The translations under genes were made by a program, and so were the position numbers. Of a DNA stretch of 64,000 nucleotides, positions 191 through 61,640 are shown in pieces (positions within the stretch are counted from its first letter, which is position 1; each line of letters begins with the position of its first letter). Source of the stretch: Candidatus Gastranaerophilales bacterium (GTDB lineage Bacteria; Cyanobacteriota; Vampirovibrionia; Gastranaerophilales; Gastranaerophilaceae); contig CALVBO010000002.1 of the NCBI GenBank assembly GCA_944325835.1, positions 124,001-188,000 of the forward strand, in the 5' to 3' direction. A model generated the notes under the pieces. It searched no databases, was not told the origin of the DNA, and saw only the letters and a program-made list of their open reading frames with translations.

Positions 191-1180
191 ATGCAAGTAA
201 ACAGTCTTAGTCCGAATAACCCGAATTTTACGGGAGCCTTAAACAATAAATTTCTCCTGAAAGGTCTGGAGAAGATATCCGAACACGGAATGACAGTAGG
301 TGCCGGAACATCACTTATAATGTCGCTTGGCGTAAGACCGCTTGCAATCCAAGCAACTCCTGACGTTGAAAAAGAAAATAAGCAATACGCCATTGCAAAC
401 TCTGTGTGTTCAGGGATTATAAAATTCGGTATGGTAGAAGCACTGGCGCTTCCGATAGAAAATGCGGTCAAGAAAATAGACCAAAATCCGCGCAAATATC
501 TAAAAAATTCCCCGAAAACCTTTGTGAAGTCACGCAGTTACGAGCTTGGAACCCAAATTATGAAACTCGGCACCGGACTTGTTACCGCAATTCCGAAATC
601 AATGCTTACAATCGCGCTTATCCCTGTCATTATGGATAAAATTTTCAACATCCGCCCGACTGACAAAAAAACGGAAATGCCTGCAGAGGCGCCTGCCGAT
701 AAAAACCTTTCTTTCAAGGGAAAATCCGCTATTGCCTCAGGCATAGGCAAAGTTCTGGATAACAAAAGCGTGCGCAAGCTTCTTAAAAAATACGAAAATC
801 AGGATAAAGATATTGCCAAACACCTCTCCGCCGGAACGGATATTCTTTTAACATCTTCCTTTGCGTGGCAGACAAGTAAAAGCGACAAAATCAAAGAAAA
901 CCGTAAAAAAGCACTGATTTACAACAACGTAATCGCAACCGGCATAACCCTTGCCGGCGGCTACGGGGTTGACAGCCTTGTTAAAGAAAAAAGTGCCAAA
1001 TTCGTCGAACGATTTGCAAAAGCGAACAAAGGTGATCCGAAACTTCACAAATATATTGAAGGAATAAACATCGTCCGCCCTGCGTTGATATTTGCGGCAA
1101 TTTATTATGGAATCCTTCCGATTTTCTCAACGTACATGGCAGAAAAAATCGACAAATTTATAGAAAATAAGGAGAGCTAA
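191..1180 (+). CDS. Unknown membrane-associated protein with N-terminal NFTG motif
   Basis: I do not recognise this 329-residue protein. It starts MQVNSLSPNNPNFTG, one of several unrelated proteins in the window that carry a short NF-T/G type motif in the first 30 residues. It has no classical signal peptide. Hydrophobic stretches near residues 45-60, 80-100, 120-145, 240-260 and 295-320 suggest membrane insertion, separated by Lys-rich soluble parts. An AGGGAAA stretch precedes the ATG. Its stop overlaps the start of the SGNH hydrolase gene (TAATG), so the two are translationally coupled. Function unknown. Confidence 0.8.
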   Translation: MQVNSLSPNNPNFTGALNNKFLLKGLEKISEHGMTVGAGTSLIMSLGVRPLAIQATPDVEKENKQYAIANSVCSGIIKFGMVEALALPIENAVKKIDQNPRKYLKNSPKTFVKSRSYELGTQIMKLGTGLVTAIPKSMLTIALIPVIMDKIFNIRPTDKKTEMPAEAPADKNLSFKGKSAIASGIGKVLDNKSVRKLLKKYENQDKDIAKHLSAGTDILLTSSFAWQTSKSDKIKENRKKALIYNNVIATGITLAGGYGVDSLVKEKSAKFVERFAKANKGDPKLHKYIEGINIVRPALIFAAIYYGILPIFSTYMAEKIDKFIENKES

Positions 1181-4905: not shown

Positions 4906-5184
4906 GTCTGGGTGGCAAAATAATCGTTGAAAATTTAATATAAATATTATGTCTGGGTGGCACTCTGCCGAGAAAAACGATTAAGTATCGTTTTTCGAGA
5001 GGGTGCGAAAGCACTTCCGCCACCGTGGATGCTAAAACAATCGTTGAAAACTTAATATAAACATTATGTCTGGGTGGCACTCTGCCGAGAAAAACGATTA
5101 AGTATCGTTTTTCGAGAGGGTGCGAAAGCACTTCCGCCACCGTGGATGCTAAAACAATCGTTGAAAACTTAATATAAACATTAT
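4906..5184 (+). repeat. tRNA-Leu 5'-end duplications carrying a hairpin module
   Basis: The first 11 nt of tRNA-Leu (GTCTGGGTGGC) occur at 4906, 4951 and 5068 before the intact gene at 5185. The 117-bp units 4951-5067 and 5068-5184 are identical. Each holds the tRNA 5' end, then the module ACTCTGCCGA-hairpin-CGAGAGG, a GTGC-GAAA-GCAC hairpin, TTCCGCCACC (reverse complement of tRNA nt 7-16) and an AT-rich promoter-like stretch ending TATAAA plus 6 nt. GGTGGC and GCCACC would close a three-way junction in RNA or extruded DNA. Confidence 0.9.
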
Positions 5185-5266
5185 GTCTGGGTGGCGGAAT
5201 TGGTAGACGCGCACGATTCAGGTTCGTGTGGAGAGATCCTTGAGGGTTCAAACCCCTTCCCGGACA
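5185..5266 (+). tRNA. tRNA-Leu (CAG)
   Basis: The 82-nt gene folds with a 7-bp acceptor stem (GTCTGGG with CCCGGAC, discriminator A), a D arm, and an anticodon arm CACGA-TTCAGGT-TCGTG giving anticodon CAG. It also has a variable arm and a T arm with TTCAAAC. CCA is not encoded. It is the only complete copy after three partial 5' copies. Its proximal promoter is TATAAA ending 6 nt before the first base. Confidence 0.93.
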
Positions 5267-10366: not shown

Positions 10367-11326
10367 TTAACGATTGACGCAACGAAGATCCATCTCGGTA
10401 GTTCTATCGAGCGGTTCTCTAAGTATCAAACCTGTAGTTCCCCATAAATACCATGCGTAATCCGCTGAATAGAGGGAAGATGACCAGTAATAGCCTTCAT
10501 GCAGCCCGAGCAGTCTTGTATTAACAAACATTGCCGCAAGTTCATAATCAGTAGGCGCCCGCAGTTTTCCGCTTTGCAGCGAACATGCTTTACCTGCCGC
10601 CTCAGACTGGGTTTTTGACGGAATATCTTCATAATACGGATTCGGCCCGACAACAATACTGTCAACAGGTTTGAAAACCGTAATAAAACCAATATCTTTA
10701 CCAACAGTATTCGGAGCCTTAATTCCGTTTAAATCGTAAATCATATTTATACATACTGATGACGCCGAAAAATAATTCGGGAAGTCTTTCTGTTCAAACA
10801 CTGAACAAACAGGGTTGAAGAAAAGATTTATGCTTTCACCGTTATCGGTAAAAAATGCTACACTATCAAAATCGTCCTGATGGTATGAATAAACACTTCC
10901 GGTTTCGGCATCCTCATAAAACATATCAACAAGTTTAGGGTTTAATTCACCCCATGATTTAGGCATTCTGAAGATAGTACCGTCAGTAGCGGTAATCGTT
11001 TGCGGCAAACCACACCCGAAGAATTTATCACCGGCACAAACCATATGAACTTTTACAAGATCACGATACTGATCCAGAAAATCTTCTGCCGAATGAAAAT
11101 CCCGCAGTGTATCCAAAAGCGGCAACGCTTGCGAAACACGGGTTAACAGGACTTTTTTTCTGACCTTGAAAATAAGATCTTCAACGTTTGCCTGCAAAGT
11201 CGGCAGCGTTAACACTGTAACGACACCAATTATAGTAAGCGCTATTACAACCTCTACCAGAGTAAACGCTCTTAATTTTCTATTCAATAAATTTTTTATG
11301 TAACCAACAAAATTATTATTTATCAT
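10367..11326 (-). CDS. Prepilin-like protein with C-terminal DUF1566-like domain
   Basis: The 319-residue protein has a basic N-terminus and a type IV pilin/pseudopilin helix (FTLVEVVIALTIIGVV, residues 21-36). The Glu at position 5 of the mature form is present, but the residue before Phe is Ala, not Gly. The C-terminal part contains KAPNTVGKDIGFI and ends YYWSSSLYSADYAWYLWG...LRCVNR, like DUF1566/Lcl-type lectin-fold domains. Two shorter relatives lie at 54.9 and 60.6 kb. Unlike them it has no poly-G leader. It is probably exported through a type II/IV pilus-like system and displayed at the surface. Confidence 0.8.
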   Translation of the reverse strand: MINNNFVGYIKNLLNRKLRAFTLVEVVIALTIIGVVTVLTLPTLQANVEDLIFKVRKKVLLTRVSQALPLLDTLRDFHSAEDFLDQYRDLVKVHMVCAGDKFFGCGLPQTITATDGTIFRMPKSWGELNPKLVDMFYEDAETGSVYSYHQDDFDSVAFFTDNGESINLFFNPVCSVFEQKDFPNYFSASSVCINMIYDLNGIKAPNTVGKDIGFITVFKPVDSIVVGPNPYYEDIPSKTQSEAAGKACSLQSGKLRAPTDYELAAMFVNTRLLGLHEGYYWSSSLYSADYAWYLWGTTGLILREPLDRTTEMDLRCVNR

Positions 11327-17162: not shown

Positions 17163-17759
17163 TTATATTTCCCGCCGTCCTTCGATTGCTCTTGCAAGCG
17201 TAATCTCATCCGCGTACTCCAAATCCGAACCTATCGGAAGCCCGAAGGCAATGCGCGATACTTTTATATTGAACGGTTTTATCAATTTTGTCAAATATAA
17301 GCTTGTAGCCTCGCCCTCAACAGACGGACTAAGTGCAAGAATAACCTCTTTTACGTCCTCATTAACAAGCCTGTTCAAAAGTTCTTTTATTCTGATATCG
17401 TCCGCGCCGATGCTGTCCATAGGCGAAATAAGCCCCTGCAAAACATGATAAAGCCCTTTATACTCATTGGTTTTTTCAATTGCGATTAAGTCTTTGGTTT
17501 CTGCAACAACGCAGATTGTCGAACGGTCGCGCGTCGGTGAAGAACAGATTTCACAAGGCGTTGTGGTTGAAATATTAAAACAGATTTCGCAGTTTTTAAT
17601 ATTAGTCTTAGCGTCCAGCATCGCCTGTGAAAACTTTTCTACCTCGGTAATCGGCATTCTGAGCAGATAAAACGCCATTCTCTGCGCGGATTTAGGCCCG
17701 ATTGACGGAAACTTTTGAAAATACTCTATTAAAGTTGCAATGGACTTAGGGTATATCAT
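17163..17759 (-). CDS. recR: Recombination mediator protein RecR
   Basis: The 198-residue protein has the N-terminal HhH region (FPSIGPKSAQRMAFYLL), the four-Cys zinc motif (CEICFN...CEIC, residues about 57-72), and a Toprim domain starting ICVVAETKDL. It acts with RecF/RecO to load RecA on gapped DNA. Its start codon overlaps the stop of ebfC (ATGA at 17756-17759), so translation is coupled. Confidence 0.97.
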   Translation of the reverse strand: MIYPKSIATLIEYFQKFPSIGPKSAQRMAFYLLRMPITEVEKFSQAMLDAKTNIKNCEICFNISTTTPCEICSSPTRDRSTICVVAETKDLIAIEKTNEYKGLYHVLQGLISPMDSIGADDIRIKELLNRLVNEDVKEVILALSPSVEGEATSLYLTKLIKPFNIKVSRIAFGLPIGSDLEYADEITLARAIEGRREI

Positions 17760-18094
17760 GAAAATAAGCCTTGTAACCCCGGAATATTTAAACCGCCTGT
17801 AACAGCAGTCATTCTTGTTTCCATTTCCTTGTTAGCCTTGTCGCCAGCCTGCTTAATAGCCGCTGAAACCACATCTTCCAACATTTCTAAAGTATCTTTA
17901 TCAACTGCTGACGGGTTTTCCGGATTAACAGCTTCGGCTGAAATCTTTATTGATTTGAATTTGCCCTGACCGTCACAAACAACTTTAACGCCGCCTGCTT
18001 CGCCGACAACTTCAAGGTTCGCAAGTTCAGCCTGTGTATCTTTTAATCTTTTTTGCAAGCCCTGAGCTTGTTTCATCATCTGCATAATATTCAT
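17756..18094 (-). CDS. ebfC: YbaB/EbfC nucleoid-associated protein
   Basis: The 112-residue protein starts MNIMQMMKQAQGLQKRLK, a typical YbaB start, and has the conserved VCDGQGKFKSIKI and Pro/Asp core. YbaB dimers bind DNA like tweezers. In many bacteria the gene sits between dnaX and recR; here dnaX is absent and the operon begins with ebfC. AGGAGG precedes the ATG. Confidence 0.93.
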   Translation of the reverse strand: MNIMQMMKQAQGLQKRLKDTQAELANLEVVGEAGGVKVVCDGQGKFKSIKISAEAVNPENPSAVDKDTLEMLEDVVSAAIKQAGDKANKEMETRMTAVTGGLNIPGLQGLFS

Positions 18095-18151
18095 TTATAC
18101 ATATCCTCCTAATGTCTTCCCTAATACCTAATCTTATTATATAATAAAAAT

Positions 18152-18949
18152 ATGGAAAATGGAACAACATATCTTTCTGAATCTTTAAAAAGCGGCCGGC
18201 TAATGCGCTGGACATTTATGCCGTTGAAGGTTTATATTGCTCCGATGAAATTTTATTCCAAACAGGGGGAAGATTACAAGTACCGCGCAATGGTAAAACA
18301 GGCGCTTGAAACATGGCAAAAAGCCTCGGACGGACGGATTTCGTTTAAAATTGTATCAACGCTGCTTGAATCCAACGTAAATATTGAGTGGAAACGCGTT
18401 GACAGACAGGCTCTCGGGTACTGTGCGTTTCAGTATGATTCGCGCAACAGACTTTATAGTGCCGAGGTTCAAATCGGGCTGACAGAAGGACTTGTTCACG
18501 CTCAATATATGGATGAAGATGAGGTTTACCACACAATTTTGCACGAAATCGGTCACGCACTGGGCTTAGGTCACAGCCCTTATAAAACCGATATTATGTA
18601 CACCCCGCACCAAAAAGGGGTGAAAACACTTTCCAAAAATGATAAACTTACACTAAAATGGCTTTATATCCTGCCGCAGGGTGCAACACCGGCCGAAATC
18701 GCAAGCAAATACGGTGCAAGCGGCTCGGATATTGATGAAGTTGTGAGAAAAATTATAAACAAGCAAAACAAATCCGGATTTGAAGAAGTGAAACAAAGTA
18801 TTAAACAAAAACCCGAACGGGATTTAGAGGAAGAGCAGGAAAGAATAGCGCTCATGCGCAAACACCACATGGCGCTTCAACACGTAACGATATCACAGGA
18901 TGTAAAAAACTACCTGCTCAACCACAAAAACCGGCCTAAAGAGTTTTAA
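18152..18949 (+). CDS. Matrixin-like zinc metalloprotease (M10)
   Basis: The 265-residue protein carries HEIGHALGLGH (residues 130-140), the HExxHxxGxxH zinc motif, followed by DIMYTP with the Met-turn. Upstream is a matrixin-like beta-sheet domain. No signal peptide is visible, which is unusual for a secreted protease. The C-terminal 90 residues are charged and may be a separate helix. The mRNA appears leaderless: TATAAT ends 6 nt before the ATG. It is divergent from ebfC. Substrate unknown. Confidence 0.85.
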   Translation: MENGTTYLSESLKSGRLMRWTFMPLKVYIAPMKFYSKQGEDYKYRAMVKQALETWQKASDGRISFKIVSTLLESNVNIEWKRVDRQALGYCAFQYDSRNRLYSAEVQIGLTEGLVHAQYMDEDEVYHTILHEIGHALGLGHSPYKTDIMYTPHQKGVKTLSKNDKLTLKWLYILPQGATPAEIASKYGASGSDIDEVVRKIINKQNKSGFEEVKQSIKQKPERDLEEEQERIALMRKHHMALQHVTISQDVKNYLLNHKNRPKEF

Positions 18950-18957
18950 AGGAGCGC

Positions 18958-19030
18958 GGCAATAAGACTCTTTTTTTCCATTTGGTCATAACGACTCATT
19001 GCCTTATTCTCTTATTGTCTTATTGACTTC
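18958..19030 (+). repeat. Copy of the GGCAATAAG repeat
   Basis: GGCAATAAGACT, a T-rich stretch, TTGGTCATAACGACT, CATTGCCTTATTCTC. Related copies lie at 56071-56140 and 61779-61830, upstream of the two poly-G prepilin-like genes. Here it fills the gap between two convergent genes. Confidence 0.65.
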
Positions 19031-19039
19031 TACATTTCT

Positions 19040-19882
19040 TTACACTTTGTAATTCCTTATACATTCGGGGTTTGTGAGGTACATTTGCCCTGAATCTTCT
19101 GCATAGCGCCCGTCAATTTTTACAGGACAAAAAATTTTTTGCTTTTCTAAAACAGCCTTTGCCTCAGTTTCGGATAACCCCTCATCAAGCAAATTTTTTA
19201 GTCTTAAATAATAACGTTTTTCCATAAAAGTTAAATCAGTTATTCTGGAAGGTGAAAGAGAAAATCCCATTTTGTGATAGAACATTCCAGGCTCAAATTT
19301 TGTACCGCCAAGCCGTCCGGCATATAATGATATTCTGTCATCGCAGCCGGAATCATTCGCAATTTTTAAAAGTTCTTTCATTGCCATTGTACCGAATTTC
19401 TTATCACGCGGAATTAGCTGCTTCTTACCCAGCCTGTCATTCATACTAAATTCATTAATCCGCATAAAGGATTTCAACAGACCCATTTCATAAAATGAAG
19501 GCCCCGGGTTATCCCAAAACCAGTTTGAAGGATAGTTAGCACCAACGCCATCCCTATCACTAACTATATCATAATGAACGTATCCCACTTTTTTAGAGCC
19601 GTGAAAGATATCATAACCGCTTTCATTAAGCCCCATAAATTTAGAGTGCTTGAAAGTCACAAAATTATCATTACAAACTTCCTCCGGCTGCTTTTTAAAT
19701 AACTTATTCCATAAATTCCGGAAGAAATTACCCACACATTGCATACCCACAGGTTGAGTTCGTACAGCCTCAAACCCGTTTTTCACTGGCGGCACATATC
19801 TTAACGTCATCTCCGGTCGATAAGCAATATGCGGACGTAAAAAGGTTCCTACAGAATATCGGGTTGTATTAAATTTTATCAT
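19040..19882 (-). CDS. GNAT-like protein, paralogue 1
   Basis: The 280-residue protein has a C-terminal GNAT-like core: INEFSMNDRLGK, then KKFGTMAMKELLKIA (acetyl-CoA loop region), then GMFYHKMGFSLSP, the usual FYxKxGF strand. The first 75 residues are unlike GNATs and start MIKFNTTRYSVG. The neighbour at 19938-20645 is clearly a paralogue. An acyltransferase role is inference; the donor-loop Q/RxxGxG/A is only approximately present (RDKKFGTM). No strong Shine-Dalgarno site is seen. Confidence 0.72.
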   Translation of the reverse strand: MIKFNTTRYSVGTFLRPHIAYRPEMTLRYVPPVKNGFEAVRTQPVGMQCVGNFFRNLWNKLFKKQPEEVCNDNFVTFKHSKFMGLNESGYDIFHGSKKVGYVHYDIVSDRDGVGANYPSNWFWDNPGPSFYEMGLLKSFMRINEFSMNDRLGKKQLIPRDKKFGTMAMKELLKIANDSGCDDRISLYAGRLGGTKFEPGMFYHKMGFSLSPSRITDLTFMEKRYYLRLKNLLDEGLSETEAKAVLEKQKIFCPVKIDGRYAEDSGQMYLTNPECIRNYKV

Positions 19883-22583: not shown

Positions 22584-23111
22584 ATGATATCAATTACGCC
22601 TTATAACATTAATCAAAACTCATCACTATCACTCAATTTTAATGGCAGAAGGAAAAAAATTGTGGAGGAAGTCGCTGTTAATATAACAAATGTTGACTCT
22701 CCTGATATTTATTTAAAAACAAAAAAATTAATAAACAACGCGACTGATTTAATCAATGAAACCTGGAACAAAATCAAAAAAAACAAATCTCACAAAAGTT
22801 TTCCGGAATTTATAAAAAAAGATTCTAACGGTTCCACTATAACCCTAAAGCCGGTCTACAATAATGAAAACCTGCTGTTATTTGAAGTGGATAAAGGAAA
22901 AGTTATAGACAGAATTTTTGTTAACCAGACAAATCCGACATATTTTAAGTATGAACAAGCCGTAAAAACTGATTTCGGAACCGCTACAACAAAAACTTAC
23001 AACAGCAAAATACAAAAAAATAATCCGCTACTGGTAGAACGCGTTAATGAAACTTTGCAAACCTACCTTCCGAAATTTTTAAATGATAAGAAAAAAGTAT
23101 CCGGAATTTAA
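22584..23111 (+). CDS. Unknown protein with N-terminal LNFNG motif (175 aa)
   Basis: Starts MISITPYNINQNSSLSLNFNG, then a Lys/Asn-rich soluble region. I chose the ATG at 22584 because GGAGG lies 8 nt upstream; an ATG at 22569 overlaps that site. It belongs to the group of proteins here that begin with a short polar leader and an NF-G type motif without a signal peptide. Its 3' end nearly meets the convergent kinase-like gene. Function unknown. Confidence 0.72.
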   Translation: MISITPYNINQNSSLSLNFNGRRKKIVEEVAVNITNVDSPDIYLKTKKLINNATDLINETWNKIKKNKSHKSFPEFIKKDSNGSTITLKPVYNNENLLLFEVDKGKVIDRIFVNQTNPTYFKYEQAVKTDFGTATTKTYNSKIQKNNPLLVERVNETLQTYLPKFLNDKKKVSGI

Positions 23112-23117
23112 CATATC

Positions 23118-24824
23118 TTATATCTTATATATAAATTTCCGCATATTATTGTAACCTTTTACGATAATATTTCTTGCATTGTCTGATTGAAGCCCTGTAA
23201 AGATTGATCGGAAAAGTTCCTCTGAAAAGTTCACAGAATCCTCCAGTAAGGAACTTAATGTTCTATTCGCAATGTATGACGAGAAATTATGTTTAACATA
23301 TCCTCTAAATTCTCTAATCTTCAACACTGCGACTTCCGAGGCATTAAGTGTGTCTAAAAGTTTTTCATCATTCGCGGTTGTTCTTAACTTTTTGAATAAG
23401 CCTTTTAATTTTTCAATATGATGAAGAGATTTTGAATCTGCCAGTGAGGAATCCAAATTCCGGATAGAATCAGTGTACATATTTGAAACTTTAGCACCCA
23501 TTAAATACGGAGCGTCCAAGCCGGAAGCATATACCGGCCTGTAACCCTCTCCCATACCCTCTAACAATTCAAGATTAGGGGTAAATATTCTTGGATTTCT
23601 GTCATTTATATAAAATTTATGCTGGGTTTCGCCTCTATTTTTACGTTTGCTGGTCATTCTCATTATGTAATCATAAGTATCTTCAGTATATGAGGTTAAA
23701 TTGTTATACCAGTAGTCCCCGTAACCTGCCATTGATTTTAAATAATCTGTTTTTGCCTTAGTTCCGGCAGAGCGTAACTGCAGGGCAATCTCCTTTCTAT
23801 AGTCCTGAACAGAACTTATTGAACAGAGATACGAAGAAGGTGAAGCTATAATATTTCTGTCAGGAAGATTTGGATCCACATGTGAATAGGCATCACGGTA
23901 GTCTGATAGAAACTGAATTTTCTTCATTTCTATTCGTAAAACATCTCTATCCGGATTTTTGTAAACTTCTGCCTTGGCCTTTTCTGCATTTAAAGCTTCG
24001 GCTATCTGTTTTCGTTCGGATGGATACGGCCAGTTTTTCGTAATTTTTTTGATATATTCATAACGTTTTTCGTGATAGTTTGATTTAACCTTAAGATATG
24101 ATTTCAAGAATGTTTCTTTTTCCGCTGGAGTGTCAAAGCTATCCATATACCACGGCATTGATGCCATTTCAAACATCTGGGCATTTTCCGGGAATTCTGA
24201 AAGCGGCATTAAAATCTTTTTACTTTTTTGATTATCAAAAAAGTTTATCTCCGGTATTTGTTCCGTCCATTGATAGTCTATGAAATTTACCGTGCCATTA
24301 GGACTGAGCAGAATATTTTTACCGTTCAAATCCCCGTGATAAATTCCGATTTTATCAAGCTCAAACATTTTATTAAACAGGTTTTTCAAATGTTCTTCCG
24401 TATAACGGTTATCTCTTGAAACGGTTTTCCCGGGAACCAGTGTTGAAAGAAGGTAATATTCGCCTCTATCATACGCTCTGGCTACAGCTTCCTGACCACC
24501 GATAAGATTAGTCGGGATTGAGGCCAGATTTTTATATTCTTTCTCATAATCCTCACTATAACCGGCTTTATTTTTCTTTATAACGATATGAGCCAGTTTC
24601 GGATGATTAAATTTGAAGGTTTCACCGCCAATTCCTTCTCCCAGCTTTGTAACGTTGCTGCCGGTTGAAATAAATTCATCCGTTTCCCGTTTTAATAGTG
24701 ATTTCAACGGGTTGAATTTGTGATTAAAATCTTCAAAATATGACTTAAAACTTATTTGTGAGGCCTGACTGTTTTTAAGCGGCCGGTTTTGTATTTGTTG
24801 AGTTAATATTGGTGCGACTTCCAT
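23118..24824 (-). CDS. Protein-kinase-like protein with N-terminal ISFKS motif
   Basis: The 568-residue protein has a kinase fold near residues 55-190. GEGIGGETFKF is the glycine loop, VIKKNK supplies the ATP-anchoring Lys, HGDLNGKNILL is the catalytic loop with Asp and Asn, and NFIDYQW replaces the DFG motif. The 370 C-terminal residues match nothing I know. Its ATG (24824) lies inside the 3' end of the HAD gene, with AGGA upstream, so the two form an operon. The N-terminus has ISFKSYFE and no signal peptide. A role as an effector or modifying kinase is inference. Confidence 0.78.
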   Translation of the reverse strand: MEVAPILTQQIQNRPLKNSQASQISFKSYFEDFNHKFNPLKSLLKRETDEFISTGSNVTKLGEGIGGETFKFNHPKLAHIVIKKNKAGYSEDYEKEYKNLASIPTNLIGGQEAVARAYDRGEYYLLSTLVPGKTVSRDNRYTEEHLKNLFNKMFELDKIGIYHGDLNGKNILLSPNGTVNFIDYQWTEQIPEINFFDNQKSKKILMPLSEFPENAQMFEMASMPWYMDSFDTPAEKETFLKSYLKVKSNYHEKRYEYIKKITKNWPYPSERKQIAEALNAEKAKAEVYKNPDRDVLRIEMKKIQFLSDYRDAYSHVDPNLPDRNIIASPSSYLCSISSVQDYRKEIALQLRSAGTKAKTDYLKSMAGYGDYWYNNLTSYTEDTYDYIMRMTSKRKNRGETQHKFYINDRNPRIFTPNLELLEGMGEGYRPVYASGLDAPYLMGAKVSNMYTDSIRNLDSSLADSKSLHHIEKLKGLFKKLRTTANDEKLLDTLNASEVAVLKIREFRGYVKHNFSSYIANRTLSSLLEDSVNFSEELFRSIFTGLQSDNARNIIVKGYNNMRKFIYKI

Positions 24825-26310
24825 TTTTTCTGTCCTTTATATATTTATATCCTGCATATCCCAGTAATCCGGCAAATAGAATTCCTGCGGCAATTTTTAT
24901 CCCTATTTTAGGCGAGCTTTTTTTAGAGTTCTTTTGTTGTTCAGCAGATTTTTTTTTTGCCCCTGATATAAGGGACTGAAAACCTGATGACATTGCATCT
25001 CTGAACATTTTATTTTTTTCAGAGTAATTCTTTATTGCTTTTTTAATGCCATCATCAATCCGGCCGGTTTCCACTTCTATAACTTTACCGATTCGACCAA
25101 ATGTATCAATCAGCGGTTGTAATTTTGAGTGTTCTTTTTTAATAACAATACTATATAACGGCAGTTCTTCCAGTTTGCGAAGGAAGCCGTTTTGCGTCAA
25201 CTCCTGCCGCAAAGCTTTTATATAGCTGCTGTTATCGCCGTTATAAATTTTTTGCAAATCCTCCAATTTGCCCTGCATATCTTTTTGATAGAAGGTCTTA
25301 TTTTTAGAATTTTTCTCACATTCTGTGAGAAAGTCTTTATCCAGATATCTTAGAGGGTTAAGCATATCAAAATCATTGGAACCGTCGCCCGCGGTTATAA
25401 CGACATCATCATTTTTCAACGCTTTTTTTACGGCTTCTTTTGTATCATAGAGTTTTGTTAAAGGGCCGTTTTCAAATTGCGGAGTAATTGAGCAGCTTAT
25501 GCGAAATTTATTATATTGCTCCGGCCCTTCCCACTCCATATTATAATGAATGTTTTTGGAACTCATATAAGCCCTTAAGTCATCCATAAAATTATCATAT
25601 ATCCAGTTTCTTTCAGGGCAATAGCCGTAATCCGGCGGGAATACCAGATAAAATTTCAAGTTTCCGTCGTTTCTTGAGCCTAATACATATTCAGCGACCG
25701 GCGTTTGGTGTTCTAAGATATGTCCGTCCCGTGAAGGCAGGTTTCTCCAATCTTCGGGGTTAAGTTTTCCTTCACTGAATAGAGATCTGTCACCGTAATC
25801 AAAAACAGAATTTTGAGAATCTGCTTCTACCAGCCGGATTTTATATTTATCAACAAGGCGTTTTAATTCATCATGAATACCCGCCCCGTCCCAGTTTGTC
25901 ATTGATTTTATATGCTCTTCTTTTTCTTTCAAGGTTCTGCCATACGAGAACGGGAAAACACCGCGCTCATAAAAGTCGCTATCACTGCCGTTTCTTATTA
26001 ATCTGTCGCTTCCGTCTTTGGTAATCAGGGTTTCCGGAAACGGCAGCCTGAAATTTCTCATCCTTAAAAGCCACGAAATACATTCGTATTCACCGTAGGT
26101 TCGGCCTGTTGTAATATTAAAATGCAAATCGCCTTCTGTGGATTTAAGAAATTTGTCAATCCTGTCACAATATTCCGGCATAAATCCGTCCGAATTGACA
26201 TCGTGCAAGGATGAATGTCTTGCAGGACAATACGTTCCGTCAAAGTCAGAAAATACCTCAACCTTGCCGGCAGTAAAATTAATTTTATCTTTCACCCCTG
26301 TTATACGCAC
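24775..26310 (-). CDS. HAD-superfamily phosphatase with C-terminal membrane helix
   Basis: The 511-residue protein has FSDFDGT (nucleophile Asp, residues 20-26), NITTGR (motif II) and ITAGDGSNDFDML (motif IV), as in Cof/sucrose-phosphatase-type HAD enzymes. A long helical C-terminal part ends in one membrane helix (GIKIAAGILFAGLLGYAGY) and a basic, Asn-rich tail. The N-terminus MRITGVKDKINFTAGK carries the NFT motif. It starts at GTG with GAGG 7 nt upstream. It overlaps the kinase-like gene by 50 bp. The substrate is unknown. Confidence 0.8.
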   Translation of the reverse strand: MRITGVKDKINFTAGKVEVFSDFDGTYCPARHSSLHDVNSDGFMPEYCDRIDKFLKSTEGDLHFNITTGRTYGEYECISWLLRMRNFRLPFPETLITKDGSDRLIRNGSDSDFYERGVFPFSYGRTLKEKEEHIKSMTNWDGAGIHDELKRLVDKYKIRLVEADSQNSVFDYGDRSLFSEGKLNPEDWRNLPSRDGHILEHQTPVAEYVLGSRNDGNLKFYLVFPPDYGYCPERNWIYDNFMDDLRAYMSSKNIHYNMEWEGPEQYNKFRISCSITPQFENGPLTKLYDTKEAVKKALKNDDVVITAGDGSNDFDMLNPLRYLDKDFLTECEKNSKNKTFYQKDMQGKLEDLQKIYNGDNSSYIKALRQELTQNGFLRKLEELPLYSIVIKKEHSKLQPLIDTFGRIGKVIEVETGRIDDGIKKAIKNYSEKNKMFRDAMSSGFQSLISGAKKKSAEQQKNSKKSSPKIGIKIAAGILFAGLLGYAGYKYIKDRKNGSRTNINSTNTKPAA

Positions 26311-26336: not shown

Positions 26337-26484
26337 GCAGTTCTCCGCCACTTCCGCCCCGCTGAACCGCGGGTCGCGCGTGGCTACGCTGTCTAATACG
26401 CCACTCAAAAGTTTCGCTTGCGTGAGCGGGAGTTGCTACGCAACTCATTCACGCCACGTTCCTTATCGCGAAACTTTCTCGGAC
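26337..26484 (+). mobile_element. Repeat element (class I, 148 bp) with compensatory stem changes
   Basis: Starts GCAGTTCTCCG and ends CTTTCTCGGAC. The outer stem reads GTTTCGC/GCGAAAC where other copies read GACTCGC/GCGAGTC, so both arms changed together. The inner arms GCGTGA/TCACGC and GAGTTGC/GCAACTC are intact. Flanks are AATAAA and AATTAAA. It lies just upstream of the GTG start of the HAD gene, on the opposite strand. Confidence 0.82.
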
Positions 26485-26563
26485 AATTAAAACAATATAA
26501 AATCAAACAAACACCATTGTCAATTAAATTTTTACGATTAGTGTAACATTTTATTAACACCTC

Positions 26564-27241: not shown

Positions 27242-28587
27242 ATGAAACGACGCGAATTTATTATAAACTCTGCGCTTGCAATAGGCGGTACCGCCCTATT
27301 AACCGGCTGCGGGGAGAAAAAAATTATTTTATCCGAAAAACCAGATTGCAAAACGCAAATATAAAGATATAGAAGTTCCGTTGCTGGGGCTTGGCTGTAT
27401 GCGGCTTCCGATGAAAGGTGATGAAGTCGATATGCAGGAACTCGAAAGAATGGTCGAATACTGCATGCAGCACGGTGCAAACTACTTTGATACCGCATAT
27501 ATGTACGTTGACGGGAAATCCGAAACCGCTGTCGGCAAAGTGTTAAAAAATTATAACAGAAAAGACCTTATCATTGCGGATAAAAGCCCTGCGATGTATA
27601 TAAAATCAAAAGATGATGTCAGAAGAATTTTTGAAGAGCAGCTGAATAAAGCAGTTCTCCGCCGCACCGCCTCGCTGAACCGCGAGCCGTTAGCGGCTGC
27701 GCTGTCTAATACGCCACTCAAAAGACTCGCTTGCGTGAGCGGGAGTTGCTTCGCAACTCATTCACGCCACGTTCCTTATCGCGAGTCTTTCTCGGACAAA
27801 AAAATGCCAGACAGATTATTTTGACTTCTATATGGTTCATAATATTAATAAAAATACAATAGATAACTATCGTAATTATGATATGTTTAATCAGTTAATG
27901 GAGTTTAAAAAAGAAGGCCGCGTCAAATATGTAGGATTTTCGTTCCACGGAACACCTGATATGCTTAAAGAAGTTGCCCCTGAACACCCGTGGGATTTTG
28001 CCCAGCTCCAGATTAACTATCTTGACTGGGATGTTGTTAAGGCAAAAGAACAGTATGATATCGTTCAATCACACAATATTCCTGTAACGGTTATGGAACC
28101 GCTGCGCGGCGGCGGGCTGGTTAATTTGAGTGAAAAAGCGCTCGCGAAATTAAAAGAATACTATCCTGACACCACCCCTGCGGCTTTCGGCTTAAGGTGG
28201 GCTGCCAGCAGGAAAAATGTTATCACAGTATTAAGCGGAATGAGCAATCTGCAGCAGGTTAAAGAAAACATCCAGACTTTTATCAACTATAAAGATATGG
28301 ATGAAAAAGAAAATCTTGCAGCAAAAGAAGTTGCAAAAGTTATCCAATCACAGGGTGAAATCAATTGTACAGCATGCAAATACTGTATGGAAGTTTGTCC
28401 GAGAGGTATAAATATTCCGGCGATATTTTCCTTGTATAATCAATATAAGACCACAGGGAATAAAATGCTTTTCTCCATTTACTACAACACGCTGGATGAA
28501 AGAGAAAGAGCTGATAAGTGTATAGCCTGCAATTTGTGTAATACGAACTGCCCGCAGGCGCTGCGGCATTCTGGGCATTTAAAAAAA
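27242..28587 (+). pseudogene. Tat-exported aldo/keto reductase with Fe-S domain, disrupted
   Basis: The gene starts MKRREFIINSALAIGG (twin-arginine signal, then LTGC lipobox) behind AGGAGG. It then shifts frame near an A7 tract (27317-27323); removing one A restores KRKYKDIEVPLLGLGCMRLP. The reductase continues to EEQLNK, where a 147-bp repeat element is inserted at 27651. It resumes as CQTDYFDFYMVHNINKN and ends with two Cys clusters (CTACKYCMEVCP and CIACNLCNTNCP). A second element follows directly at 28588. With both lesions no full-length enzyme can be made. The parent family are periplasmic NAD(P)H-type oxidoreductases with ferredoxin tails. Confidence 0.85.
27651..27797 (+). mobile_element. 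Repeat element (class I, 147 bp) inserted in aldo/keto reductase gene
   Basis: GCAGTTCTCCG...CTTTCTCGGAC, with all stems seen in the 26337 and 59247 copies. The interrupted codons are recognisable on both sides: AATAAA before, and AAAAAAA-TGCCAGACAGAT after. The reading frame stays open through the element for 49 codons, then is shifted by one on exit. Confidence 0.9.
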
Positions 28588-28913
28588 GCAGTTCTCCGTC
28601 GCCTGCTTGCCCTGCTCAAAGCGTAAGCCGATGCTCGCAGTGTCACCTCGTGGGAACGAGGGGAGCAGGCGAGCATAATATCACCGCCGTTTCTAATCTT
28701 TGATTTGTCAGGCGGGGTAACGCAGGTCAACCTGCTTACCTCTCACAAACGATACTCAATCGTTTGTTCGGCAGAGTGCTGTCTACCTCTCGCAAAACAA
28801 TTCACTGGATTGTTTTGCTCGGCAGAGTGCCACTCAAAAGACTCGCTTGCGTAAGCGGGAGTTGCTCCGTAACTCATTCACGACACGTTCCTTATTGCGA
28901 GTCTTTCTCGTAC
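28588..28913 (+). mobile_element. Composite repeat element (class II, 326 bp) between two broken genes
   Basis: Starts GCAGTTCTCCG, has the CGCCTGCT/AGCAGGCG and CCGCC/GGCGG hairpins, and two inverted modules (TCGGCAGAGT at about 28768 and 28820). It then carries the GAGTTGC-type 3' half and ends CTTTCTCGTAC. Runs of 7 and 6 A flank it. The left half is like the 5275 and 43247 copies and the right half like the class I copies. Confidence 0.85.
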
Positions 28914-29741
28914 AAAAAAGCGAAAAAAGATTTTAACAAAGAAAGTATTTTACCGACAATCGCGTTGACTTCATTTGTCTTTGCGCTGCAGATGATTAAT
29001 TTTTCCGTTCCAACAACCGCCTCAAGCGGCCATATCGTCGGCGGGCTTTTACTTGCGGCACTGCTCGGACCTTATGCCGGCTTACTTGCAATCTGTTCAA
29101 TCTTGCTGGTTCAGGCCGTATTCTTCGCAGACGGCGGCTTAATGGCTCTGGGATGCAACATTTTTAATATGGGCTTCCTTGCCTGCTTTGTTGCGTATCC
29201 TTTAGTCTATAAACCCCTTGCTGAAAACAGACGCAGCGCATTCGGTGCGATATTAGCATCAATTGTTGCGCTCCAGCTCGGCTCAATTGCCGTTGTAGCA
29301 GAATCCGCACTGTCAGGTTCTACAAGTGCTAATATCGGATTATTCGCAAGTTTAATGCAAAGTATTCACCTTGCAATCGGTATTGTTGAAGGTGTATTCA
29401 CTGCCGCAGTTATCCTGATTGCGCAAAGAACACAGCTTTCAAAAGAGTTCTCTTATACAATTTCTGCGTTGTCATTGATTCTTGCAGGAGTAATCTCACA
29501 GTTTGCATCTCCAAAACCGGACGGGCTGGAATGGTCACTGATTAATATGTCCGACTCCTTTGTTGCGCAAACTCAAGGTTACATATATTCGATATCCGAA
29601 TTAATTCAATCCAAAGCCGCAATCCTGACACAAATTCCGTCAGTTTTGGCGAACATAGGCGGACTGGTACTTCTCGCAGTACTCATGTTTGCTCTTTGTA
29701 AACTTTTAACGGCAAAAAAAGTACCTGCTTATGAAAAATAA
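28914..29741 (+). pseudogene. CbiMN/LarMN-type metal ECF permease, N-terminus lost
   Basis: From KKAKKDFNKESILPT the protein follows CbiM (MINFSVPTTASSGHIVGGLL, FFADGGLMALGCNIFNMGF). It ends with a CbiN/PDGLE part (PKPDGLEWSL), so it is a fused nickel or cobalt energy-coupling-factor permease. The usual start with MHIPDG-type residues that bind the metal is missing; the repeat element stands in its place. An ORF from TTG 28764 reads through the element into the gene, but no ribosome site supports it. It overlaps larE by 11 bp, which suggests nickel supply for LarE's cofactor. Confidence 0.8.
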
Positions 29742-49108: not shown

Positions 49109-49528
49109 ATGATTTCAGCCATTACCCCGGTAATGAATACTAACACATATTCAGTACAACAAAACCACAAACACAACAATCAACAACAAAACTTCGGTGC
49201 ACTTCAGGCTCAATTCAATCCAGGCGGCAAAATATCAAGAAGTGCAGATATTTTATTAGATAAATTCTTATATCATTTTGAGAATGTCGCAAAGAAAATA
49301 GGACTTGATACTCAAAAATTAGAACAAAAAGGATACAATTTATGCCTTGATTCCACGAAAAAAGAGGATATGGATCTTGGAATCTTAAACGGCGTATTAA
49401 AAAATAAAAACGGGGAAACCGTTAAAGGAAACGGGAAGTATATAGATTGTACGATCTTCGATTGCGCAGAGGACAAAGCTGCCAAATCATTTGCAAATAC
49501 ATTAAGCAAATTAAATTTAACTGCATAA
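49109..49528 (+). CDS. Unknown small protein with QNFGA motif, paralogue 1
   Basis: 139 residues starting MISAITPVMNTNTYSVQQNH, then a His/Asn/Gln-rich stretch ending QQQNFGALQ. The helical part contains DKFLYHFENVAKKIGLDTQKLEQKGYNL, which is matched by [28 protein letters not shown] in the next gene, so they are paralogues. Soluble, no signal peptide. ATAGGAG precedes the ATG. A consensus promoter suggests high expression. Function unknown. Confidence 0.8.
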   Translation: MISAITPVMNTNTYSVQQNHKHNNQQQNFGALQAQFNPGGKISRSADILLDKFLYHFENVAKKIGLDTQKLEQKGYNLCLDSTKKEDMDLGILNGVLKNKNGETVKGNGKYIDCTIFDCAEDKAAKSFANTLSKLNLTA

Positions 49529-49545: not shown

Positions 49546-49968
49546 ATGGATCTAAGCATTACCCCGATTAGTTTTAAAAACACCACCAACTGCAAAAGAA
49601 ACAACAATCAAGCACAAAATTTTGAAGCATTACCAATAAGAGTATTCCGCCATCCGGAAGTAGGTGCAGATGTACTCAATGCTGCGGTAAAAAGAGATAA
49701 AGTTGTCGACAAATTCATGGGCAAAGTTGAAGAACTGGCTAAAAAAGTTGGCATCAATACAGACAAATTTGCAGAAGAAGGATATTCCGTTGAATTTATT
49801 CCGAAATTCCCGTTCAGTTCTAAAATGTCTGCTGCATTAAAAGATAAAGGACGCAACATTGTTAAAGTTGATGAGCAGCCTTTAATGGTAAATATCAGAA
49901 GAGGCAATGAATTTGAAGAAGCCGAAAACTTCACAAATATGCTCCAACGCTTTAACCGTGAAGGCTAA
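49546..49968 (+). CDS. Unknown small protein with ISFKN/QNFEA motifs, paralogue 2
   Basis: 140 residues starting [20 protein letters not shown] and then QAQNFEAL. The C-terminal domain matches the preceding gene: both have a conserved helix, a Gly-Tyr turn and a final NFTNML / SFANTL segment. GGAG lies 7 nt before the ATG. It lies 17 bp after its paralogue and overlaps the convergent rmlA by 4 bp. Confidence 0.8.
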
Positions 49969-54837: not shown

Positions 54838-54867
54838 TAAAAAAGAGGGGTAAGGCCCCTCTTTTTT
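54838..54867. terminator. Bidirectional terminator between argS and prepilin-like gene
   Basis: AAAGAGGGG-5 nt-CCCCTCTTT followed by TTT, and preceded by an A-run for the opposite strand. Confidence 0.9.
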
Positions 54868-56030
54868 AGCGTTTAACACATTGTGCTGATATATCACCGG
54901 TTTCATCTTTGAACACAGAACCCATTACACCTGCATTACCGTTAAGTTGTATAATTCTGTTTGCACTGCCGGGTGAGGAGCTTGTATAAAACTGCATTGT
55001 AGATATATTGGGAATAAATTTTTTGTTAACCCACAATGAAATTGCTTCCTCCTTATTTGGCAGCCTTGCATCGTCCTGTTCACGGCAAAATTTCACAGCA
55101 TCATCATAATAACCGGTTTTAGTTTGATAAACAGGCATCGGGCTGACAACATTTGAGTCAAAAGAATACAACGCCGTTATAAAACCAACATCTTTACCTA
55201 CAGTATTCGGCCCTTTAGAACCGTTAAGGTCATAGATAAAATTTGCACAAATCAAAGGCGAAACAATATATGCCGTAAGCCTTTCTTCTGCCCCGCGGCA
55301 AGAAGGATTGTAGTAGACGACCAAACTTTCGCCGTTCTGTGTTTCAAACGCAGCCGCTTTGGCATTAATCATAGAATGCGAATCTAATGACAGACCGGCA
55401 TAAGAAGCATTAATCATTTTGGAATTTAATTCTAACCAATCAAGCGGCAGGTCGACCGCAGAACCGGTTGTATTAATGCTGCTTACAATACCGCAATCCT
55501 CAAGGTGGTCACTGTCACAAATATTATTAATCTTAAGCACCTTAGCCAGACCATCTGTGATAAAAGTTTCAGCAGCAGTGTCCACTGCATCACTTGCGCC
55601 GGAGGAACTGTCTTCCGTCAGTGTTCCGTAGCCGTTAAGTGAAGGCATAAGCGCGATTGCCTGTGAAAATCTTGCATAAAGAGCTTTTCTTTGCGTGTTC
55701 CAGGTGCGCTCGTTAATGTTTCCCGTCAGTGACGGAAGCGTTATCGCCGCCACCACGCCGATTATCGTGAGGGATAATAATATTTCTGCCATGGTAAATG
55801 CTATTCGACGTCCGTGAGCCCGTAAACCAATTATGGCTCTCGACTCAGTCGGTGTCATTCCGAACTTGTTTCGGAATCTGTCCGGCGACACCGGTAGTTC
55901 GCAACACTGGTCAGATGCTGAAACGAGTTCAGCATGACATGGGGAACTTACGACCTCAACTCCTAATTGGGCGGATAAAGCCGGCCCCCCCCCCCCCCGT
56001 GCAAATTGTTACATTCCTCTGTTTTTTCAT
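54866..56030 (-). CDS. Prepilin-like protein with poly-G leader (frame OFF as sequenced)
   Basis: The body has a prepilin helix FTMAEILLSLTIIGVV, a conserved LNGSKGPNTVGKDVGFI segment and a C-terminus QCVKR, like the 60.6-kb paralogue. The only start with a ribosome site is ATG 56030 (AAAGGA 7 nt upstream); its leader MKKQRNVTICT enters a G14 tract. G13 would read straight into the prepilin frame. G14 stops after about 14 further codons at TGA. An internal GTG at 55891 opens the body but lacks a Shine-Dalgarno site. The leader also contains a dispersed palindromic repeat (55853-55939). Probably a phase-variable surface or pilus-associated protein. Confidence 0.8.
55853..55939 (-). repeat. Dispersed palindromic repeat inside prepilin leader
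   Basis: Contains CATGCTGAACTCGTTTCAGC and ATTCCGAAACAAGTTCGGAA, both self-complementary, joined by a variable centre. It reads in frame with the prepilin body (CHAELVSASD...DRFRNKFGMT). The 15424-15511 repeat is related. Confidence 0.7.
55985..55998 (-). repeat. G14 homopolymer tract
   Basis: Fourteen consecutive G on the coding strand, 32 nt after the leader ATG. Such runs mutate by slipped-strand mispairing and switch the reading frame. Confidence 0.9.
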
Positions 56031-57962: not shown

Positions 57963-58757
57963 GTGGTCGTATCCGGCATCAATAATTATCAAATACAAAC
58001 TTTAAATTTCGGCGCAAAAACCCGCTCTGAACGCGAAGCTGAAAAACAAAAATCATACACGCGTATGGCTACAATTATGCTGCCGGAAGCAGACATACAG
58101 CTTCTTGAAGCTGCCAAAAAGGCTGCACGGGAAAGAGAATTAAAGGAACAAGCGCGCAGGGAAGAAGAAGCGCGTTCACAAACCTCTGAAAAACAATATA
58201 AACAAGACGTTAAAGAGCTTAAAGATACACAAAAAATATTAAATGAAATAACGCAGGCAGACAAAGATAAAAACTTGCTTGCCGGCGGAACATTAAAGAA
58301 AATCGGTACAGCCGCAGATATTTTAATCACAGCAACGTTAAGCGGTATGGCGCTTCACTGGAGTACGGGCAAAGCTTTCATTATGCTGAATAAATTCTTT
58401 AAAAAGCCAAAAGTTGCCAAGGTTATAAATAACGTTAAACGCCCGTTCCAAATTATCGGCTCGTCTATAGCAGAAGGCGCGCAAACAGCATGGCATTCTA
58501 TGACACGCAAAGTTAAAGCAACCGATAGCGGTAAAAAATTCATCAACTCTAAACCGGTACAAAAAATCAATGAAGGACTTGATGAAATCAAAACTTCATA
58601 CAAAAACTTTAAAGCAGATGCAAAAGCCCTTACCACGGATGACATCAAATCCGGAATTTCAACAATATTCGGCGTAAGCGGATTTGGTGCTGCAGCAATA
58701 GAAAAGCTTGACAAAACATCATCTAAAAATACAGCAAAAGAACCAAAGGACGAATAA
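57963..58757 (+). CDS. Unknown protein with LNFGAK motif (264 aa)
   Basis: Starts at GTG (GGAGG 6 nt upstream) as MVVSGINNYQIQTLNFGAK, the NF-G type leader. A long charged helical segment (KAARERELKEQARREEEARS) suggests a coiled coil. A weakly hydrophobic region lies near residue 120 and a basic region follows. No signal peptide or known domain. Its stop overlaps the next gene's start (TAATG), so they are coupled. Confidence 0.77.
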   Translation: MVVSGINNYQIQTLNFGAKTRSEREAEKQKSYTRMATIMLPEADIQLLEAAKKAARERELKEQARREEEARSQTSEKQYKQDVKELKDTQKILNEITQADKDKNLLAGGTLKKIGTAADILITATLSGMALHWSTGKAFIMLNKFFKKPKVAKVINNVKRPFQIIGSSIAEGAQTAWHSMTRKVKATDSGKKFINSKPVQKINEGLDEIKTSYKNFKADAKALTTDDIKSGISTIFGVSGFGAAAIEKLDKTSSKNTAKEPKDE

Positions 58758-59245
58758 TGTATATTACCCCGGTCAATAACGTTATATATTTTCGTGCTAA
58801 AACTACCGATGAGGACAGGGACAAGAAAAAAGTTACACCTCAAGACGCCGCGGTAGCAACCGGTGCTGCCGGCGCAACAGGTTCTGCAATAGCGAGCAAA
58901 GGAACATTTAAATCGTTTTCACAGGCAAACAAAAAACTTAATACGACCGCTAAAAATCTTAAAACCGGACTTGAAACCGCAACAGATGTTTCAAAAAAAG
59001 CTCACGGAATACTCGGTAAATTCAAAGCCAACTGCCTGCATTTTAAAGAAAAATTTATAGATTTCGGCAAAGGCGTTTCAAACTCAAACCTTCTGAAACC
59101 AATTCTTGAAAGTAAGGCCTACAAAGGTGCCGCAACCGTTGCCGGCGGCGCAACAGCAGGCATCGTTGCGATCTCCGGAATAGGCGAAATGTTCAATACT
59201 TTCGCTAAAAAAGCCCAACAGTTTACAACAGACGCTGATGAATAA
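58757..59245 (+). CDS. Unknown protein with IYFRAK motif (162 aa)
   Basis: Starts MYITPVNNVIYFRAKTTDED, again with the short N-terminal motif. It has Ala/Gly/Thr-rich segments (ATGAAGATGSAIASKG; GAATVAGGATAGIVAISG) that may be membrane-active, between Lys-rich regions. It is translationally coupled to the 264-aa gene. A repeat element begins within 2 bp of its stop codon. Function unknown. Confidence 0.77.
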   Translation: MYITPVNNVIYFRAKTTDEDRDKKKVTPQDAAVATGAAGATGSAIASKGTFKSFSQANKKLNTTAKNLKTGLETATDVSKKAHGILGKFKANCLHFKEKFIDFGKGVSNSNLLKPILESKAYKGAATVAGGATAGIVAISGIGEMFNTFAKKAQQFTTDADE

Positions 59246-60574: not shown

Positions 60575-61640
60575 TTAACGTTTGACGCACCGCACCGCGA
60601 GGTTGTCAATAGTCATGTGGTTCATAACCCCTACTGAGAACTTGACATACCACGCTTCATCAATGGAAGATGATAAAGAAGATGACCAGTACCTATCCTG
60701 TGTCATATTACCGATTAAATTTTTATTGATGAACAAAGCCCCCAGTTCTTCTTTTGACGGCATCCGGTAGTCGCTATCCTGATTTTTACAAATACCGCTT
60801 ACATCATCCATCGCAACAGCCGTTGATGCATCATTAGGCTGTGGATACGGTGCAACTATCAAACTGTCCGTCGGATAAAATACCGTAATAACACCCATAT
60901 CTTTGCCTATTGTATTTGGGCCCTTGTTGCCATTTAAATCATAAAGGAAATTAGCACACATTTTCTTCTGCACATAGATATAATTCGGCTCGGCTAAAAG
61001 CGTTGTACAGCGCGGATTATAATAAAGTGCAATACTTTCGCCGTTTGCAGTTTCAAATGCGGCGGCTTTGGAATTAATCTGCGAATAAGAATGCATACCA
61101 CCAGAACCGGAAGTCCAAACTACAGATACCGAGGTATTCAAAGGATTTAACGCTTCAAGGTCAATCGGGAAATCCATCTGGCTGCCTGCAAGAGTCGTAA
61201 CTTTTTCCGGCAAACCGCAGTCATCGAGGTGTTCATTATCACAAATATTATTAATTTTTAAAACCTTTGATAATCCGCCGGTCAAGAAAGTTTCCGCGAC
61301 ATTATCCACACCGTCGCCGGCGCCGGGAGATGATTCCTCCTGCAGCGTACCATAACCGTTTAAAGAATCCATTAACGGTATTGCCTGTGACAAGCGGGCA
61401 TAAAGCGCTTTTCTCTGCGTGTTCCAAGTGCGTTCGTTTATGTTGCCGGTAAGTGACGGAAGCGTTATCGCTGCAACCACACCGATTATCGTGAGGGATA
61501 ATAAGATTTCTGCCATTGTGAATGCTAAATTCTTGCTCGGATTCAATTGTGGAAGTCGCTCAGCGGCCGACTCCTCAATTGTGCCTGTTAAGAGAGGCCC
61601 CCCCCCCCCCTGATAAAATCCTTACATTTCGATTTTTCAT
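60575..61640 (-). CDS. Prepilin-like protein with poly-G leader and DUF1566-like end (frame OFF)
   Basis: The body has FTMAEILLSLTIIGVV, then NINERTWNTQRKALYARLSQAI, GPNTIGKDMGVI and a DUF1566-like end RYWSSSLSSSIDEAWYVKF...VRCVKR. The start with a ribosome site is ATG 61640 (AAAGGA 8 nt upstream). Its leader MKNRNVRILS enters G13. G12 would continue as GGGG-PLLTGTIEESAAERLPQ into the prepilin; G13 stops at TGA seven codons after the tract. An internal TTG at 61546 lacks a ribosome site. Close paralogue of the 54.9-kb gene. Confidence 0.8.
61598..61610 (-). repeat. G13 homopolymer tract
   Basis: Thirteen consecutive G on the coding strand, 30 nt after the leader ATG, in the same position as the G14 tract of the paralogue. 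Confidence 0.9.

What the first reader, a model, noticed from the sequence alone, without database searches (positions are those of the whole stretch)
57963..59245. Unrelated proteins share a short N-terminal NF-G / I-F-K type motif
NFTG (191), LNFNG (22584), ISFKS (24824), INFTAGK (26310), QNFGA (49109), ISFKN and QNFEA (49546), LNFGAK (57963) and IYFRAK (58757) all fall within the first 35 residues, after a short polar leader. The rest of the proteins differ (kinase, HAD phosphatase, small helical and membrane-active proteins). None has a classical signal peptide. This may be an unrecognised targeting or secretion signal.
Basis: inference. Interest (0 to 1): 0.72.

Follow-up and report, generated by a model that had tools for sequence, protein, structure and literature searches.

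The report
Shared N-terminal leader in gut Gastranaerophilales
Dozens of otherwise unrelated proteins of a non-photosynthetic gut relative of cyanobacteria begin with the same kind of short, floppy, polar leader that ends in an 'I-x-F-x-G/A/S' motif; it behaves like an unrecognised address label, perhaps an export signal for the flagellum-derived secretion machine that these bacteria keep although this species has no flagellin, but the export step is not proven.

Summary
The window comes from a Candidatus Gastranaerophilales genome (class Vampirovibrionia). The motif is N-terminally enriched, about 2-fold loosely and 3- to 4-fold strictly. The enrichment replicates in other Gastranaerophilales and is absent from photosynthetic and other outgroups and from an F-to-L control. 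Roughly half of the single N-terminal matches are still chance. Orthologue alignments show more: the leader is bipartite, M-x-[IV]-[STNP]-x-[IV]-x-N, then a variable polar linker, then [ILV]-x-F-x-[GAS(R)]-[KR]. F and the start are conserved while the linker gains and loses residues. The leader sits on kinase, HAD phosphatase, 5'-nucleotidase, GH77 glucanotransferase, amidohydrolase, radical-SAM, PRTase, Ntox44-like toxin and orphan membrane proteins. Housekeeping GH77 paralogues in the same genomes lack it. A targeting function is likely (about 0.6). My best mechanism, at 0.42, is export by the order's second, divergent flagellar-type type III apparatus: the own genome has FliF/H/I/N/P/Q/R, FlhA and two short rod proteins but no detectable flagellin. 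Genomic links exist (a GH77 leader gene directly follows a soluble FlhA-C protein in 6 genomes), but two neighbourhood tests were not significant. No secretion experiment exists.

The parts
57963..58757 (+). 264-aa orphan helical protein; leader MVVSGINNYQIQTLNFGAKTR (start element + LNFGAK); GTG start with GGAGGC site
   Evidence: 5 same-genus orthologues keep MVV[SA][GS]INNY and [ILV][NS]FGA[KQ]TRSERE with indels between
58757..59245 (+). 162-aa orphan protein, start overlaps the stop of the gene before (TAATG); leader MYITPVNNVIYFRAKTT
   Evidence: Same pair and same leader M[YH]ITP[VI]NNV[IL]YFRAKTT in 5 same-genus genomes
191..1180 (+). 329-aa membrane protein, leader MQVNSLSPNNPNFTGA
   Evidence: weak own-genome relative on C1 also begins with a leader, MIINSINYTNNPY
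22584..23111 (+). 175-aa orphan, leader MISITPYNINQNSSLSLNFNGRR
   Evidence: orthologues in L034, L035, L087
23118..24824 (-). 568-aa kinase-like protein, leader MEVAPILTQ..QASQISFKS
   Evidence: 12-sequence alignment: M, P5 and F26 kept, linker 17-58% identity; AF2: residues 1-34 pLDDT about 30, then kinase fold
24775..26310 (-). 511-aa HAD-like protein, leader MRITGVKDKINFTAGK, C-terminal glycine-rich TM segment; overlaps kinase gene
   Evidence: Orthologues INFTAGK / LNFKAGK / LNFMAGK; HAD-IIB, weak; TM
49109..49528 (+). 139-aa orphan, leader MISAITPVMN...QQNFGA
49546..49968 (+). 140-aa paralogue of the preceding gene, leader [12 protein letters not shown]

Best explanation
The motif is the second half of a short, disordered, bipartite N-terminal leader: start element M-x-[IV]-[STNP]-x-[IV]-x-N(N), a polar linker of 0-45 residues, then [ILV]-x-F-x-[GAS, R in GH77]-[KR]. 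It has been placed in front of many unrelated domains and acts as an uncleaved targeting signal. Most likely the leader is recognised in the cytosol by the order's divergent flagellar-type type III export apparatus (candidate docking proteins: FlhA and the order's soluble FlhA-C-like protein), and the proteins are exported unfolded. In this genome that apparatus has a short rod but no detectable flagellin. Shown: the leader, its enrichment and conservation, and the apparatus genes. Inferred: recognition and export.
For: (1) Positional enrichment replicated outside the own genome and absent in outgroups and in the F-to-L control; an unbiased pattern scan puts [ILV].F.[GAS] or [NS] and polar N-rich runs among the top N-terminal patterns in Gastranaerophilales but not in outgroups. 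(2) Start element and F motif conserved with a variable-length linker in kinase, 57963 and GH77 families, and without linker in 58757; the two elements co-occur (OR about 8, p 0.004 in the own genome; strict start element 13/489 vs 0/214 in outgroups). (3) Leader predicted disordered. (4) In the same genomes the housekeeping GH77 has no leader while another GH77 paralogue has it. (5) 5'-nucleotidase-type proteins in this order carry either a Sec-type N-terminus or a polar non-Sec leader; a further leader protein has an Ntox44-like toxin domain, below Pfam's cut-off. (6) Own genome: FlhA, FliE, FliF, FliH, FliN/SctQ, FliO-P-Q-R and a FliI-like ATPase, no flagellin, only two short Flg_bbr_C hits. 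FlhA in all 58 order genomes tested and in none of the f8/f29 class outgroups except one sub-threshold hit. (7) A leader-bearing GH77 gene directly follows the soluble FlhA-C gene in 6 genomes; leader proteins flank fliI and precede fliN-R in the own genome. (8) Leader composition (N/S/T/P/Q-rich, D/E-poor) broadly resembles type III signals, described as unstructured and S/T/I/P-rich (PMC10333785); a flagellar apparatus can export non-flagellar proteins by N-terminal signals (PMC2764114).
Against: Neighbourhood enrichment was not significant: 7/57 vs 129/1458 near core genes (p 0.25) and 12/77 vs 24/235 near FlhA-C/FliI (p 0.14). Published residue tendencies of type III effectors (I3, N5, S/G8, S9; PMC2668754) were not met one by one, and the composition shift did not replicate in the smaller family/order sample. 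Some carriers (radical-SAM, PRTase, GH77, kinase) look like cytosolic enzymes. Several non-Sec 5'-nucleotidases have the start element but not the F motif.
Confidence: 0.42

Rival explanations
1. The leader is a docking motif for an intracellular site (membrane patch, scaffold, condensate or enzyme assembly), and the carriers stay in the cell. The disordered linker exposes the F motif, which binds a groove of an unknown receptor.
For: Cytosolic-looking carriers: radical-SAM, PRTase-CE, kinase, GH77; two carriers have C-terminal glycine-rich TM tails; a fixed aromatic core with variable linker is typical of short linear motifs (inference).
Against: 5'-nucleotidase-type and Ntox44-like carriers suggest an extracytoplasmic role; no receptor candidate; start element at the very N-terminus suits export better.
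Confidence: 0.28
2. The leader serves another export route (an ABC exporter, a T2SS/pseudopilin-linked route, or an unknown system), perhaps with cleavage after F-x-G/A.
For: The motif often lies just before the first strand of the domain (TatD-like, HAD, 5'-nucleotidase), where a cleavage site could sit; pseudopilin-like proteins abound.
Against: Orthologue conservation continues past the motif (FGAKTRSERE), and the motif lies up to 60 residues in; no peptidase or exporter association found.
Confidence: 0.12
3. No single signal: polar, Asn-rich N-terminal extensions are common in AT-rich genomes, and a frequent F-x-G/S string in them was picked out by eye.
For: Polar N-termini are also over-represented in outgroups; the loosest motif form is not significantly enriched (p 0.09); held-out matrix not significant in own and weak in family sets.
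Against: F-to-L control, replication in the order, conservation of F and of the start while the linker varies, paralogues with and without leader.
Confidence: 0.15

Closest known systems
N-terminal signals of type III secretion effectors (virulence injectisomes)
   Same: Within the first tens of residues, unstructured, polar, acid-poor, apparently uncleaved, on unrelated domains; a bias to [IV] at position 3 (33% vs 16%, p 0.045), compatible with the MxIISSxS synthetic signals quoted in PMC2668754
   Different: Known signals have no clear consensus (PMC10333785); here there is a recognisable second element I-x-F-x-[GAS]-[KR] and Asn instead of Ser enrichment; N5, S/G8 and S9 tendencies not seen
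Export of non-flagellar proteins by a flagellar type III apparatus (Campylobacter jejuni)
   Same: Flagellar-type core genes present; in that precedent an N-terminal sequence directs export of non-flagellar proteins (PMC2764114)
   Different: Own genome has no flagellin and a divergent apparatus scoring below flagellar cut-offs for FlhA, FliF, FliP, FliQ, FliR; export untested
Sec signal peptide
   Same: N-terminal; in 5'-nucleotidase-type proteins of the order, one subgroup has Sec-type N-termini and another a polar leader
   Different: No hydrophobic core

Membership tests
Type III secretion signal | N-terminal, unstructured, polar leader without hydrophobic core | tested here: met
   AF2 pLDDT about 30 for kinase residues 1-34; N/S/T/I/P/Q-rich and D/E-poor in F-motif carriers of the own genome
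Type III secretion signal | Published position tendencies I3, N5, S/G8, S9 | tested here: not met
   Only [IV]3 weakly enriched; N5, S/G8 and S9 not
Type III secretion signal | A type III export apparatus in the same cell | tested here: met
   FlhA, FliE-F-H, FliN, FliO-P-Q-R, FliI-like ATPase
Type III secretion signal | Carrier genes cluster with apparatus genes more than by chance | tested here: inconclusive
   7/57 vs 129/1458, p 0.25; 12/77 vs 24/235, p 0.14; but FlhA-C/GH77-leader adjacency in 6 genomes
Type III secretion signal | Necessary and sufficient for export | not testable with these tools
   Needs a secretion assay
Sec signal peptide | Hydrophobic core within the first about 30 residues | tested here: not met
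   No hydrophobic N-terminal segment in the window carriers
Flagellum (own-genome apparatus) | Flagellin filament | tested here: not met
   No Flagellin_N hit
Flagellum (own-genome apparatus) | Hook and hook-associated proteins | tested here: inconclusive
   Only two short Flg_bbr_C hits in ORFs of 152 and 235 aa and three weak rod hits; no hook-length ORF seen, but hook families were not searched on their own

The most novel reading that the evidence does not exclude
An entire bacterial order of animal-gut symbionts uses a flagellum-derived type III secretion machine, kept after loss of the flagellum in some genera, to export a large repertoire (tens of proteins per genome) of enzymes and toxin-like proteins marked by a recognisable bipartite N-terminal consensus, with a soluble FlhA-C-domain protein as a dedicated substrate receptor.
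Probability: 0.25. Interest if true: 0.9.

Novelty: new variant of a known kind. Interest (0 to 1): 0.62.

Why it matters
Type III signals are notorious for having no readable consensus; a lineage with a readable one would let substrates be listed from sequence and the receptor be mapped. It would also give a first view of how uncultured gut Gastranaerophilales act on their host or neighbours. Even if the proteins stay inside the cell, a short order-wide targeting motif on kinases, phosphatases and carbohydrate enzymes would point to an unrecognised cell-biological sorting step in this class. No paper on type III secretion in this group was found in the open library searched.

Tried and rejected
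MEME-like EM on N-termini: swamped by pseudopilin paralogues and hydrophobic N-termini. Loose patterns on unclustered sets: ambiguous, outgroups also enriched. Polar leader alone as the signal: also enriched in outgroups, so not specific. Held-out matrix in own/family sets: not or only weakly significant. Gene-neighbourhood tests: not significant; the first of them lacked the FliI-like gene because of a coordinate slip of mine. Effector residue tendencies: not met. AF2 of the 57963 protein: pLDDT 40, unusable. Signal peptide and pilin-like explanations: rejected, no hydrophobic core. Annotation artefact (wrong starts): rejected for 57963/58757 and the kinase, because start, ribosome-binding site or leader are conserved in orthologues.

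Full report
What the window is. The window is G000:C2:124001-188000 of a 1.95-Mb genome in 44 contigs. Its kinase gene matches records named Candidatus Gastranaerophilales and Candidatus Scatousia, so it is a gut member of class Vampirovibrionia, the non-photosynthetic relatives of cyanobacteria.

The observation. The two genes in the given coordinates, 57963-58757 and 58757-59245, overlap by one base (TAATG). Five same-genus genomes carry the same pair with the same starts and the same GGAGG-type ribosome-binding site before the first. Two of the eight listed genes (49109, 49546) are paralogues.

Is it more than chance? I called genes with my own simple caller on 864 kb (44%) of the genome and on sampled stretches of relatives and outgroups. 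The loosest motif form is barely enriched (70 vs 59 expected, p 0.09). With the hydrophobic residue before it there are 32 vs 15.4, or 24 vs 14.1 without the window. In sets with one protein per family and no hydrophobic N-terminus, the strict form is enriched 4.2-fold in the own genome, and a related form 2.9-fold in independent family/order samples. It is not significantly enriched in outgroups, and exchanging F for L abolishes it. An unbiased scan of some 100,000 three-residue patterns also ranks [ILV].F.[GAS] or [NS] and N-rich polar runs among the top N-terminal patterns of this order only. A matrix trained on own-genome sites and applied to proteins unrelated to them gives OR 2.0-2.7 in the order (p 3e-4 to 1e-3 at thresholds 6-7), but only weak or no excess among the remaining own and family proteins. 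So the enrichment is real but modest; about half of the single matches are background.

What it is. Orthologue alignments show a two-part leader. 57963: MVVSGINNY-linker-[ILV][NS]FGAKTRSERE. 58757: M[YH]ITP[VI]NNVIYFRAKTT. Kinase: M-x-[IV]-x-P-[IV]-linker-[IVL][NS]F[KQG][SAT], with F in 92% of rows while linker columns have 17-58% identity. GH77: M-x-[IV]-x-x-[IVL]-linker-x-F-x-[RE]-[RK], with M1 and F14 invariant. The start element and the F motif co-occur more than by chance, and the strict start element occurs in 13 of 489 own families and 0 of 214 outgroup families. In the kinase model the leader is disordered (pLDDT about 30) and the fold behind it is a protein-kinase-like domain with a helical extension.

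Who carries it. Carriers include a kinase and an overlapping HAD gene, an amidohydrolase, two 5'-nucleotidase-type phosphoesterases, a radical-SAM-like protein, a PRTase-CE protein, GH77 and aldose-epimerase paralogues and an Ntox44-like protein, a weakly amylase-like 1421-aa protein, a nucleotidyltransferase, and many orphans, some with transmembrane segments. In the 5'-nucleotidase family the order has members with a Sec-type N-terminus and members with a polar non-Sec leader; not all of the latter have the F motif. The best-scoring GH77 paralogue of each genome has no leader, while another one does.

A candidate machine. FlhA/SctV is present in all 58 order genomes examined and absent from one class outgroup. 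In a class-wide sample it is missing from families f8 and f29 apart from one sub-threshold hit, and present in most others. The own genome has one full FlhA, with FliE, FliF, a FliG-like protein and FliH beside it, FliN-O-P-Q-R elsewhere, and a third F1-type ATPase that I read as FliI. FlhA, FliF, FliP, FliQ and FliR score below the flagellar equivalog cut-offs. No flagellin is detectable; only short rod-like proteins are. In two relatives of other families in the order the same locus starts with rod genes, so this is a flagellum-derived apparatus. In addition, nearly every order genome has a soluble protein consisting of a short N-terminal domain and the FlhA cytosolic domain. In six genomes this gene is followed within 32-55 bp, on the same strand, by a leader-bearing GH77 gene, and in five of these a leader-bearing membrane protein lies next to that. 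The own-genome orthologue of that membrane protein lies just before the FliI-like gene. These links are suggestive. Formal neighbourhood tests with a leader definition fixed beforehand were not significant (p 0.25; p 0.14), and homologous neighbourhoods are not independent.

Mechanism. I consider a targeting function likely (about 0.6) and export through the flagellar-type apparatus the most likely form of it (0.42). Shown: leader, enrichment, conservation, disorder, presence of the apparatus. Inferred: recognition by FlhA or the soluble FlhA-C protein, export in unfolded form, an uncleaved leader. General precedent: type III signals are N-terminal, unstructured and rich in S/T/I/P without clear consensus (PMC10333785), and a flagellar apparatus can export non-flagellar proteins (PMC2764114). 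Against a simple identification, the published residue tendencies of effectors (PMC2668754) are not met position by position.

Verdict. The interpretation as an unrecognised targeting signal is supported; secretion is plausible but unproven. I rate it a new variant of a known kind, with a quarter chance of the stronger reading.

Noticed in passing
G000:C5:21485-22957 (L021:1485-2957, minus); relatives L210-L217: Soluble protein of about 490 aa: short N-terminal domain plus the FlhA cytosolic domain without the membrane part, one copy in nearly every Gastranaerophilales genome and hardly outside the order. Possible substrate receptor; not known to me.
   Followed up: partly
window 23118-26310: HAD-like and kinase-like genes overlap by about 50 bp and keep this order in many Gastranaerophilales contigs; both carry the leader. 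Could be an antagonistic kinase/phosphatase pair.
   Followed up: no
window 10367-11326, 54866-55891, 60575-61546 and many copies elsewhere: Many pseudopilin-like N-termini, several near-identical (FTMAEILLSLTIIGVVAAITLPSLTGNINERTW), with divergent C-terminal parts.
   Followed up: no
L129:15806-17608 and 17691-19499, L021:9891-11336, L123:5102-6106: Multicopy proteins beginning MG[LM][SA]ASQAR[LF]L.[IL]T.R.NN, two of them next to FlhA; possibly exported structural subunits or a filament.
   Followed up: no
window 26354-26491, 27667-27804, 28783-28920; also 4909-5195: A dispersed 138-nt repeat (68-89% identity) fused into several ORFs, interrupting or extending genes; and a 117-nt tandem repeat of 2-3 copies.
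   Followed up: partly
L005:14675-15313: 212-aa protein with an Ntox44-like toxin domain (below Pfam's cut-off) and leader MDTIKISDVNFGSF, the best held-out hit of the motif matrix.
   Followed up: no
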